Shown one piece after another: positions 26,554 through 53,796 of a DNA stretch of 64,000 nucleotides. The stretch covers positions 1 to 64,000 of the forward strand of contig SYAZ01000053.1 of NCBI GenBank assembly GCA_005788815.1. The letters run 5' to 3'. Positions within the stretch are counted from its first letter, which is position 1; each line of letters starts with the position of its first letter. The notes under the pieces are model-generated. The model had not been told where the DNA came from and searched no databases. It saw only the letters and a program-made list of their open reading frames with translations. A program made the position numbers and the translations under genes. This DNA is from Actinomycetota bacterium (GTDB lineage Bacteria > Actinomycetota > Acidimicrobiia > Acidimicrobiales > Ilumatobacteraceae).

Positions 26554-28320
26554 ATGCTTCGTCTCTCCAAACTCTTCGTTCGCACCTTGCGTGATGACCC
26601 TTCCGATGCTGAAGTCCCCAGCCATCGCCTCTTGGTACGGGCGGGCTACATCCGCCGAGCCGCCCCCGGTGGGTATACCTGGCTACCGCTTGGTTGGAGG
26701 GTGCTTCGCAAAGTCGAGGACATCGTTCGCCAAGAGATGGACGCCATGGGAGCACAAGAGGTTCACTTCCCTGCCCTCCTTCCTCGCGACGTGTACGAGG
26801 CCACCGGACGATGGACCGAATATGGCGACAACCTTTTTCGCTTGAAAGATCGCAAAGGCGCCGACTTCTTACTTGGACCAACACACGAAGAGATGTTCAC
26901 ACTGCTCGTGAAAGATATGTACTCGAGTTATAAAGACCTTCCTGTTTCGCTGTACCAGATTCAAACGAAGTATCGCGATGAAGCTCGACCACGTGCTGGC
27001 CTGTTACGCGGTCGCGAGTTTCTCATGAAGGACAGTTACTCATTCGACATCGACGATGATGCGCTTGCAGTTAGTTATGCGCAACATCGTGATGCATACG
27101 AACGCATCTTTGCGCGCCTGCAATTGCCATACGTCATTGTGAAAGCGATGAGCGGTGCTATGGGTGGTTCTATGAGCGAAGAATTCCTTGCGCCCATCGA
27201 AGTGGGTGAAGACACATTCGTTCGTTGCTCAGCATGTGACTATTCAGCAAACACAGAGGCAGTTACCACATCATCTCCTGCTGCTGATAGCAACACCTAC
27301 GATGCGTCGTCTACTATCGCAACCCCCAACTGCCCCACCATCGCAACACTCGTTGATTTACTCAATGCAAATCATCCGCGCACAGATCGTTCGTGGGAAG
27401 CACACGACACTCTCAAGAATGTCGTACTACGTCTTCGTCAACCAGATGGTTCCACAGAGACACTCGTCATCGGCGTACCTGGCGACCGTGAAGTCGATAT
27501 GAAGCGCATTGAGGCACAGCTTTCTCCTGCAGAAGTAGAACCACTCGACGAAGAAGGGTTTGCTCAACATCGCACGCTTATTCGTGGCTACATCGGGCCA
27601 CAAGTTCTTGGAACCACTTCTACATCTGGCATTCGCTATCTCGTCGACCCTTCGGTGGTTCACGGCAGTGCTTGGGTGACTGGCGCAAACACCAAAGACA
27701 CACACGTCATTCATTTGGTACATGGCCGCGACTTCACTGCAGACGGAACCATTGAAGCCGTCGAAGTGGCAGCTGGGGATCCATGCCCCAATTGCTCAGC
27801 GCCTCTTGAGATAGCACGCGGTATCGAGATTGGTCATGTCTTTCAATTGGGTCGCAAATACGCAGACAAACTTGGGCTTACCGTTCTTGATCACAATGGA
27901 AAACAAGTAGTAGTCACCATGGGCTCATACGGCATTGGCGTATCGCGTGCAGTTGCTTCCATCGCCGAAGTATTCCATGACGACATCGGCTTGAAATGGC
28001 CACGAGCCATTGCACCTGCCGATGTGCATGTAGTCGTTACTGGCAAAAATGGTGACGACATCACTATCGCCGGCGAAAAGATTGCGGTCGAACTTGAAGC
28101 GCAAGGTCTTGACGTGCTCATCGACGACCGCAACGGCGTGTCACCTGGCGTGAAGTTCAAAGACGCTGAACTCATTGGCATCCCCACCATCTTGGTGGTG
28201 GGCAAATCTCTCGCGGAAGGAAATGTTGAACTGAGGGACCGCCATACGGGAACCAATGAAGCAATTCCTGTTGCAGATGCCGTTACCCGAGTTGTTGCAC
28301 TCGCCCGAAGCGGTCAATAG
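26554..28320 (+). CDS. proS: prolyl-tRNA synthetase
   Basis: 588 aa; [23 protein letters not shown]; class II motifs with insertion domain. Confidence 0.98.
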
Positions 28321-45567: not shown

Positions 45568-47106
45568 CTAAGAAACCTTGGCAACACGAGCATTGAACTC
45601 AGTAATCAAGTTGTCCCACACTGGGGCATAACTACGTACCGAGCGCCAGAACGACTGTGATCGACGCGCTTCAAAGACATCAAGAGGAGTTCCTTGCTGT
45701 TCTACCCATGTGTAATATCCAAGGTTGAAAATACGATTGCGATCTCGTTCGGTGCAGTCAATCATGTTGTCTGTACTTACTGAACCCAGATGCTCACTGA
45801 AAATTTCCGCCGCATCAACTGCACTGAACTCACCCTTGAAGCGAGTAGCAATTGTCTTCACACGCTCACTTGGGTACAGGGCCCCGCCATCTGTTGCGAT
45901 GGTAACGATTGCATCATTTGCGCCGTATCCCATCAACTTCGCTGTCTTGATTGCAGCCAAAACATTGCAAATAGCAGAGAATCCAAAATGAGTTAACGCA
46001 TCAATCAGTTCTGCACTGAAACCATGACGGGATGCGAGATACTGCTGACCAGCAGGCATATTGAAAAGAGCGTCGAGTTCATCGGTTGCACGATCGGAAA
46101 CCCCGACGACCACATCTGTGTTCATCACGTTGTGAATCAGAGGAATATGCTTGTCGCCGATTCCCTGAATATTGTGTTCACCAAAACCGTTTTCCAACAT
46201 CGTGGGGCATTCAAGAGCCTCCACAGCAACAATCTTTGTGCCGTAGATGTCTTTCAATCTGTCGCCAGCAGCAATGGTGCCAGCAGAACCCGTGGCAGAA
46301 GTAAACGCTGCCAGTCGAATGTCTGAACGTCCATTTGCTTTCACATGCTCGAACGCATGTGCCAAAGCACGCCCTGTGACTTCATAGTGACCAACATGGT
46401 TGCCAAACTCGCAGAACTGATTCAAGATGAAGTTGCCTGGGTCTTTCGCCATTTCGTTACATGCGTCGTAAATCTCTTTTACATTGCTCTCGGTGCCAGG
46501 AGTTCGCACAATGTCAGACGGGTCTGCGACCCACTTATCGAGCCAATCGAATCGCTCTTGTGACATGCCCGCAGGTAGCACTGCCACTCCACGAGATCCC
46601 ATGAGTCGACTGATTGCAATTCCACCACGTGCATAGTTGCCAGTAGATGGCCATATGGCGCGATGGCGCTCTGGATCGAACTGACCAGTAATTACTCTTG
46701 GCACGAAACATGAAAACGCTGCCAGCACTTTGTGGGCAGTAATCATGGGGAATCGATCACCAAAGACAACGATGATTGGGGATTCAATTCCTGTCAGAGA
46801 TGACGGCAAAACAATATGGTCCGGAACCTCGACACGATTGCCGTCGAGGTCGTTGTACCAATGCACACGAAAAAGATTGCGCGGGTCGGCAGCATTTTTG
46901 TCGACACCCCGTGTGATGTCTTGTGAGATGAGTCGAGGTTCGGCCAACTCACCAAAAGTAGGAAGCACAATCTTTTGTGCTGCAAAACGCTTCACACTGC
47001 TCTCAAGGGATGCCGAATCCACCACGGTGTTGGCGAGGCCAAGTTGCTCTTGCAATGCAGTGGCGTCGAGAGCGAGATTCAGGGAAGATGCGTCAGTAAT
47101 TGTCAC
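45568..47106 (-). CDS. PLP-dependent cysteine-synthase-like protein
   Basis: 512 aa; STGNYARGGIAISRLMGSRGVAVLP; fold-type II features. Confidence 0.65.
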   Translation of the reverse strand: MTITDASSLNLALDATALQEQLGLANTVVDSASLESSVKRFAAQKIVLPTFGELAEPRLISQDITRGVDKNAADPRNLFRVHWYNDLDGNRVEVPDHIVLPSSLTGIESPIIVVFGDRFPMITAHKVLAAFSCFVPRVITGQFDPERHRAIWPSTGNYARGGIAISRLMGSRGVAVLPAGMSQERFDWLDKWVADPSDIVRTPGTESNVKEIYDACNEMAKDPGNFILNQFCEFGNHVGHYEVTGRALAHAFEHVKANGRSDIRLAAFTSATGSAGTIAAGDRLKDIYGTKIVAVEALECPTMLENGFGEHNIQGIGDKHIPLIHNVMNTDVVVGVSDRATDELDALFNMPAGQQYLASRHGFSAELIDALTHFGFSAICNVLAAIKTAKLMGYGANDAIVTIATDGGALYPSERVKTIATRFKGEFSAVDAAEIFSEHLGSVSTDNMIDCTERDRNRIFNLGYYTWVEQQGTPLDVFEARRSQSFWRSVRSYAPVWDNLITEFNARVAKVS

Positions 47107-47169
47107 GGGTCAAGTTTGCCACCTCTGACCCCACTGTCCTCTGCCTCCTGGCTGTACCCTTCTGTAAGC

Positions 47170-47243
47170 GCCGGTGTAGCCCAATTGGCAGAGGCAGCAG
47201 TTTTAGGTACTGCGTGTTGGGGGTTCGAGTCCCTCCATCGGCA
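47170..47243 (+). tRNA. tRNA with anticodon UAG and short variable loop (Leu by anticodon; non-canonical body)
   Basis: GCCGGTG TA GCC CAATTGGCAGA GGC A GCAGT TTTAGGT ACTGC GTGTT GGGGG TTCGAGT CCCTC CATCGGC A; all stems pair, CCA not encoded. Confidence 0.8.
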
Positions 47244-47245
47244 CG

Positions 47246-48262
47246 ATGCACATAAACGACCTTCCCACCCCAGCAGTTGTCATTGATATTGCTGCCCTGC
47301 GCAAGAACATCGCCACTATGGCCGATGTTCATCCGGGCAAACGATTACGACCCCACATCAAAGCCCACAAGTGTTCTGGCCTCGCCGCCGAACAAGAAGG
47401 CGCTGGTCACAGTTCTTTCACCTGTGCCACACCGCGCGAGGTGCTCGGCATGATTCATGCCGGCGTTGGCAACGATTTCCTTCTCGCAAATGAGGTACTT
47501 GATCCACGTCGTTTAGAGGCGTTAGCAAGTGCACAAGACCAAGCCCTCATCACGCTTGCAATTGATTCAGAAGAAACTCTCGATGCAGCAGAACGCGCCG
47601 GAATACAAAACATCATGATCGATGTGAATGTGGGCCTTCCCCGGTGTGGTTGTGACCCCAGCATCGCTGGTCGACTCGCTGACTCTGCACGCGTACGCGG
47701 CATGACTGTTCGCGGCGTCATGGGCTATGAAGGCCATCTTATGATGGTGAATGATCGCGAAGAAAAGAAGAAGAACGTTCGCGATGCAATGTCGATTCTT
47801 GCACTCGCACACGAAGACGTTGGCGGAGACATAGTTTCTGCCGGCGGAACAGGCACATACGACATGTTCGCGGGCACCACTGTGAATGAAGTGCAAGCTG
47901 GTAGCTACACATTGATGGACACCCAATATGCACAACTGGGAATTCCATTTGTGCAAGCGATGTGGGTAGTCGGAACAGTTATCTCTAGCAACAATAAGTG
48001 GTCAGTCGTCGACGTGGGTTTGAAATCACTCGGGATGGATCATGGCAATCCAAGCATTGATCAACATTCCGTTTGGTTTTGCTCGGACGAACACATCACC
48101 TTTAGCGCAAACGAAGGCACTCCCCGCCCTCAAGTGGGAGACAGAGCATTTGTGGCGCCGTCACACATTGATCCCACAATGGCATTACATGAAGAGGCAT
48201 ACGTCGCCAATTCATTTGGCGAGATAATCGCAGTATGGCCAATTGATTTACGTGGTTGGTAA
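47246..48262 (+). CDS. D-threonine aldolase / D-serine dehydratase-like (fold-type III PLP enzyme)
   Basis: 338 aa; PTPAVVIDIAALRKNIATM...LRPHIKAHKC. Confidence 0.82.
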   Translation: MHINDLPTPAVVIDIAALRKNIATMADVHPGKRLRPHIKAHKCSGLAAEQEGAGHSSFTCATPREVLGMIHAGVGNDFLLANEVLDPRRLEALASAQDQALITLAIDSEETLDAAERAGIQNIMIDVNVGLPRCGCDPSIAGRLADSARVRGMTVRGVMGYEGHLMMVNDREEKKKNVRDAMSILALAHEDVGGDIVSAGGTGTYDMFAGTTVNEVQAGSYTLMDTQYAQLGIPFVQAMWVVGTVISSNNKWSVVDVGLKSLGMDHGNPSIDQHSVWFCSDEHITFSANEGTPRPQVGDRAFVAPSHIDPTMALHEEAYVANSFGEIIAVWPIDLRGW

Positions 48263-53413: not shown

Positions 53414-53796
53414 GGGGCTGACAGGTTTCGACACCAGTTTCGTTGTTCGTACGTGCGACCCGAATTGCTCAGATTCGTTAAACGGGGCAAAAAACAGAAT
53501 TGCCAACAAGCAGTTCGCTCTTGCTGCCTAATCCGTTAGGTAGTTGAGAGACATCGTGACCAGCAATGGCGCACGGGGCCAATTCATTGCAGCCCGGCAA
53601 CAGAAGCAAAGAATGACGGCGAGAAAGACCGCTGACTTTAGGAAAGACTGATGACATAGCGGAAAGACGTTGCGCAGTTCTCGCAAGAGATCAGTCGACT
53701 CGTCGATGGGGTTGCGTTAGCTCTACAACGGGAATGGTCGTATCACTGGCGAATAGCGCCTGATGGACGGGGGTTCGATTCCCCCCAGCTCCACCA
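53414..53796 (+). ncRNA. ssrA: tmRNA (SsrA); predicted tag AKNRIANKQFALAA
   Basis: 5' GGGGCTGACAGGTTTCGACA and 3' GGGTTCGATTCCCCCCAGCTCCACCA; tag ORF gca aaa aac aga att gcc aac aag cag ttc gct ctt gct gcc taa (53487-53531). Confidence 0.95.

What the first reader, a model, noticed from the sequence alone, without database searches (positions are those of the whole stretch)
47170..47243. UAG-anticodon tRNA with a class I (5-nt) variable loop
Seen: all stems pair and the anticodon loop TTTAGGT gives UAG (reads CUA, Leu), but the variable region is only GTGTT. Bacterial tRNA-Leu normally has a long variable arm. The body looks closer to tRNA-Thr(UGU): acceptor GCCGGTG, G1-C72 and C2-G71 (Thr identity pairs in E. 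coli). The D stem is only 3 bp. CUA seems to mean Leu here: it encodes the invariant Leu of YTWLPLG in proS (26683-26685) and conserved Leu positions in lepA (EPLDGY, YELDDY). So it is either a second, non-canonical Leu tRNA, a mischarging/minor tRNA, or a non-translational tRNA. I do not know whether this type is already catalogued.
Basis: partly seen in the sequence, partly recalled or inferred. Interest (0 to 1): 0.75.

Follow-up and report, generated by a model that had tools for sequence, protein, structure and literature searches.

The report
Leucine tRNA without its long arm
This is an ordinary working leucine tRNA that reads the codon CUA but has lost the long side arm textbooks give bacterial leucine tRNAs; it belongs to a widespread and little-discussed family found in actinobacteria and in phages, and it does not change the genetic code.

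Summary
In detail: 47170-47243(+) encodes a complete UAG-anticodon tRNA with a 5-nt variable loop and a 3-bp D stem. It is not a pseudogene. All 32 held genomes of the genus have it, with compensatory changes in the stems and a -10-like TANNNT box 15-16 nt upstream. The searches found no class II (long-arm) tRNA-Leu(UAG) in the genus, so it appears to be the only UAG tRNA there. A complete genome from another family of the order has class II Leu tRNAs for CAG, UAA, CAA and GAG, and the short form for UAG. The scaffold belongs to a large family of short-arm Leu tRNAs. An anticodon-blind scan of viral contigs returned 129 such tRNAs, all with Leu anticodons, covering all six. The known LeuRS determinants (A73, A15-U48, G18G19, A20a) are kept, and reviewed work on E. 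coli LeuRS finds the variable arm dispensable. CUA behaves as a Leu codon. Best reading: LeuRS charges it and it decodes CUA as Leu. Such tRNAs are already annotated in phages, and the short loop was noted in passing in 2019. I found no systematic description.

The parts
47170..47243 (+). tRNA-Leu(UAG), class I architecture: 7-bp acceptor, 3-bp D stem, Leu-type 11-nt D loop CAATTGGCAGA, 5-nt variable loop GTGTT, A73, no encoded CCA
   Evidence: ARAGORN; Rfam; conservation; covariation; scaffold-anticodon association
47155..47160 (+). TACCCT, -10-like box (TANNNT) starting 15 nt upstream of the tRNA
   Evidence: TANNNT starts at -15 or -16 in 30 of 30 genus loci, 27 distinct upstream sequences; background 0.0024 per position in the window
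47178..47194 (+). D-arm signature AGCCCAATTGGCAGAGG shared by the short-arm Leu tRNA family
47246..48262 (+). downstream gene beginning 2 nt after the discriminator: Ala_racemase_N plus D-ser_dehydrat domains (D-threonine-aldolase-like); conserved neighbour, not thought to be part of the mechanism
   Evidence: Pfam; synteny
45568..47106 (-). divergent upstream PALP-family gene (neighbour only)
   Evidence: Pfam

Best explanation
It is a functional leucine tRNA that reads CUA (and probably CUG by wobble), with the long variable arm reduced to five nucleotides. The ordinary leucyl-tRNA synthetase charges it, recognising A73 and the D-loop/T-loop hinge (A15-U48, G18G19, A20a), which are all intact, and needing neither the anticodon nor the variable arm. 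In this genus, and in some other lineages of the order, it stands in place of the canonical class II tRNA-Leu(UAG). Shown here: structure, conservation, likely promoter, Leu-only anticodon set of the scaffold, presence of the determinants, absence of a class II UAG tRNA by pattern, and Leu behaviour of CUA. Inferred: charging by LeuRS, expression, wobble range, and the direction of the change.
For: Leu-only anticodons: an anticodon-blind scan of viral contigs gave 129 tRNAs, all Leu (UAA 50, UAG 37, CAA 24, AAG 8, GAG 6, CAG 4). In the order every listed match carries UAG, UAA, CAA or CAG. Control scaffolds such as CTCAA-GGnAGAGC, with slightly different D arms, carry up to 15 amino acids. A73 in 235 of 235 and U48 in 229 of 235, although neither was in the search pattern. 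A review reports A73, A15-U48, G18G19 and A20a as E. coli LeuRS determinants and that tRNA-Leu without the variable arm stays active (PMC9976931). Replacement: complete genome G038 has class II Leu CAG, UAA, CAA, GAG and class I UAG only; genus genome G022 has class II CAA, AAG, UAA, CAG and class I UAG. At CUA codons 74.9% of differing aligned residues are Leu, against 69-76% for the other five Leu codons. Covariation; promoter.
Against: No charging or expression data. Bacterial tRNA-Leu is normally class II, and some LeuRSs do use the long arm (Haloferax, PMC9976931). The genus also has tRNA-Leu(AAG), which, if converted to IAG, could read CUA, so the short tRNA may not be the sole CUA reader. 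The codon test compares species that share the same tRNA. A15, G18G19 and A20a were part of the search pattern and so are not independent evidence.
Confidence: 0.93

Rival explanations
1. A mischarging or code-changing tRNA: a Thr-like (or other) body with a UAG anticodon that puts a non-Leu residue at CUA.
For: Acceptor stem GCCGGTG resembles tRNA-Thr(UGU) GCCGGGT; yeast mitochondria have a tRNA-Thr(UAG) (PMC7609411).
Against: Discriminator A, while the genome's Thr tRNAs have T73. Nearest tRNAs by alignment are Leu; Thr ranks ninth. Scaffold found only with Leu anticodons. CUA behaves as Leu; Thr is not among the eight residues most often aligned with it.
Confidence: 0.03
2. A real Leu tRNA that is largely redundant for decoding, because tRNA-Leu(AAG) with inosine also reads CUA, and that has an extra role such as regulating the gene 2 nt downstream.
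For: Class II tRNA-Leu(AAG) in three genus genomes; very close downstream gene kept in the genus; similar neighbour in at least one other family.
Against: Family members sit in many different neighbourhoods and in phage tRNA arrays; G038 has GAG rather than AAG and keeps the short UAG tRNA.
Confidence: 0.06
3. A pseudo-tRNA or a mobile-element remnant.
For: Odd architecture; relatives in phage arrays.
Against: 32 of 32 genus genomes, compensatory changes, conserved -10 box, no other UAG tRNA found.
Confidence: 0.01

Closest known systems
Bacterial class II tRNA-Leu(UAG)
   Same: Anticodon, A73, A15-U48, 3-bp D stem, 11-nt D loop with AA-GGYAGA
   Different: Variable arm of about 5 nt rather than a long stem-loop; D stem GCC/GGC instead of GCG/CGC; mostly A9 instead of G9
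Short-loop tRNA-Leu(TAG) of the Mycobacterium mucogenicum/phocaicum tRNA cluster (PMC6582537)
   Same: UAG anticodon with a short variable loop, noted by the authors
   Different: There an extra copy in a tRNA cluster beside a normal long-arm isoacceptor; here a stable chromosomal gene with no long-arm UAG partner found
tRNA-Leu genes of Bxz1-type mycobacteriophages (e.g. ET08, NC_013650)
   Same: 74-76 nt tRNA-Leu; the CAG gene has the same D-arm type
   Different: Phage-borne, other anticodons; the ET08 GAG and CAA genes have other D arms
Mitochondrial tRNA-Leu without long variable arm
   Same: Short variable loop, Leu identity resting on A73 and the D loop (PMC9976931)
   Different: Organellar, with its own LeuRS
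Yeast mitochondrial tRNA-Thr(UAG)
   Same: UAG anticodon without a long arm
   Different: 8-nt anticodon loop and recoding of CUN to Thr; neither is seen here

Membership tests
tRNA-Leu (identity sense) | Discriminator A73 | tested here: met
   Window A at 47243; 235/235 family members
tRNA-Leu (identity sense) | Trans-Levitt pair A15-U48 | tested here: met
   A15 and U48 in the window; U48 in 229/235 family members
tRNA-Leu (identity sense) | G18G19 and A20a in a Leu-type D loop | tested here: met
   CAATTGGCAGA in the window; determinants as in PMC9976931
tRNA-Leu (identity sense) | Leu anticodon | tested here: met
   UAG; relatives carry only Leu anticodons
tRNA-Leu (identity sense) | Charged with leucine by LeuRS | not testable with these tools
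   Needs in vitro leucylation or acid gel
Canonical bacterial class II tRNA | Long variable arm (10 nt or more) | tested here: not met
   5-nt loop GTGTT
Short-arm tRNA-Leu family (as delimited here) | D arm AGCCCAA-GGnAGAGG with variable loop of about 5 nt and Leu anticodon | tested here: met
tRNA-Thr | Thr anticodon (GU at positions 35-36) | tested here: not met
   UAG
tRNA-Thr | Discriminator as in the genome's own Thr tRNAs (T73) | tested here: not met
   A73 here; T73 in Thr(tgt), Thr(cgt), Thr(ggt)
Allo-tRNA (8/4 or 9/3) | Acceptor/T-stem lengths 8+4 or 9+3 | tested here: not met
   7+5
Pseudo-tRNA | Decay of structure or conservation | tested here: not met

The most novel reading that the evidence does not exclude
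Short-arm tRNA-Leu is an alternative leucine-tRNA architecture covering all six Leu anticodons, shared between phages and actinobacteria, that has replaced canonical class II isoacceptors in bacterial chromosomes, so that in some lineages it is the only tRNA for a Leu codon. It has not been described as a family.
Probability: 0.45. Interest if true: 0.55.

Novelty: new member of a known kind. Interest (0 to 1): 0.4.

Why it matters
It breaks the textbook rule that bacterial tRNA-Leu always carries a long variable arm, and gives a natural experiment in many genomes on which parts of tRNA-Leu the synthetase needs. It also warns that a short variable loop together with a Leu anticodon should not be read as recoding. 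The spread between phage tRNA arrays and chromosomes makes the replacement of a host tRNA by a mobile one testable.

Tried and rejected
Thr origin: rejected on discriminator, D arm and nearest neighbours. A dedicated LeuRS: LeuRS of short-arm carriers is of both the KMSKS-like type (G171) and the KMGKS type, the C-terminal domain is kept, and G048 and G035 have the KMGKS type with class II UAG, so no coupling was seen. A first LeuRS script failed on locus orientation and a second on the KMSK motif. A class II UAG pattern across the phylum was mis-designed (wrong tail spacing) and is ignored. The phylum class I pattern returned only members of the window's own family, while the genome-contig scan found many Actinomycetota; I did not resolve that sampling difference. 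Ten literature searches found no paper on the family as such.

Full report
What is there. At 47170-47243 on the plus strand lies a complete cloverleaf with anticodon UAG and a five-nucleotide variable loop. The D stem has three base pairs (GCC/GGC) and the D loop has eleven nucleotides (CAATTGGCAGA), the same plan as the class II leucine tRNAs of related genomes (GCG/CGC stem, GAATTGGCAGA loop). The discriminator is A; CCA is not encoded.

It is a real gene. The same gene is in 32 of 32 held genomes of the genus, 85-100% identical, and in the genus loci read here it is followed by the same downstream gene; all 30 loci keep UAG and the five-nucleotide loop. Across 18 family members 99.4% of pair cells are standard pairs, and 16 of 20 pairs carry changes on both sides, against 8.3 in shuffles. 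A TANNNT box stands 15 or 16 nt upstream in 30 of 30 loci with 27 distinct upstream sequences; such hexamers occur at 0.0024 per position in the window.

It replaces the usual tRNA. A pattern covering short and long UAG tRNAs listed, for the genus, only the short form, and the long form in G035, G041, G044, G046, G048 and G053 (its row list was cut, so not every genome of that search is shown). In the complete single-contig genome G038 the class II Leu tRNAs are CAG, UAA, CAA and GAG, and UAG is the short form. In genus genome G022 the class II set is CAA, AAG, UAA, CAG. Elsewhere, long and short UAG forms may coexist: the Mycobacterium mucogenicum and M. phocaicum type strains have a normal copy and a short-loop copy in a tRNA cluster (PMC6582537).

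It is a leucine tRNA. Searching the order for the D arm and loop lengths without naming the anticodon gave matches in 96 of 298 genomes, none with the reversed control pattern, and every listed match carries UAG, UAA, CAA or CAG. Near-identical D arms with other D-stem bases carry up to 15 amino acids. A73 (235/235) and U48 (229/235) are conserved although neither was specified in the search. These are the elements reported for E. coli LeuRS: A73, A15-U48, G18G19, A20a, with anticodon and variable arm dispensable (PMC9976931). By alignment the window tRNA is closest to Leu tRNAs, with Thr ninth, and the genome's Thr tRNAs have T73.

CUA still means leucine. In 171 alignments of 32 window genes with other species of the genus, the residues opposite CUA, identical codons left out, are Leu in 74.9%, against 69.0-75.9% for the other five Leu codons.

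Mechanism. The simplest account is that the ordinary LeuRS charges the tRNA through the discriminator and the D/T hinge, and the ribosome uses it at CUA. LeuRS of carriers shows no special feature: carriers have both LeuRS types and retain the C-terminal domain. Charging itself is inferred.

What is known. Class I-length tRNA-Leu genes are annotated in mycobacteriophages. A 2024 study of M. tuberculosis names tRNA-Leu-2, -3 and -5 as those with long variable loops (PMC11541572), which suggests but does not say that the others are short. Early tRNA phylogenies note Leu tRNAs with short arms without further detail (PMC2474678). No systematic account turned up in ten searches of an open-licence library, which misses most subscription journals. 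The window gene is therefore a new member of a known but little-discussed kind.

Noticed in passing
L161, L166, L169 (G022, G031, G001): The genus carries a class II tRNA-Leu with anticodon AAG where the order relatives G038, G061 and G048 have GAG; if A34 becomes inosine it would read CUU, CUC and CUA.
   Followed up: no
G150, G064, G146, G061, G170, G246 and others: Other lineages of the order have short-arm forms of tRNA-Leu(UAA), (CAA) or (CAG), so the replacement affects different isoacceptors in different lineages.
   Followed up: partly
G563, G564, G565, G566, G567: The Corynebacterium, Nocardioides, Actinopolyspora, Sphaerisporangium and Lentzea genomes show short-span UAA tRNA-Leu candidates, and all but the Nocardioides genome also a short-span UAG one, in one pattern search; no long forms were recognised in that listing.
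   Followed up: no
L219, L279, L286, L291, L304: Dense arrays of tRNA genes (over 30 in L219) containing short-arm Leu tRNAs, L219 in a record labelled Planctomycetaceae; probably mobile elements or phages.
   Followed up: no
LeuRS of G046, G041, G171 versus G048, G001, G038 and others: Two LeuRS types occur in the order, one with a KMSKS-like motif (open frames about 850-875 aa) and one with KMGKS/RMGKS (mostly about 940-980 aa).
   Followed up: partly
window 53414-53796: tmRNA gene with tag peptide ANKQFALAA.
   Followed up: no
window, both strands: TANNNT hexamers are rarer than TA and T frequencies predict (0.0024 against about 0.006), perhaps avoidance of spurious -10 boxes.
   Followed up: no
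L079-L098: In several other families the short-arm UAG tRNA lies beside a ClpP-like reading frame, and in L088 also before the D-threonine-aldolase-like gene.
   Followed up: partly
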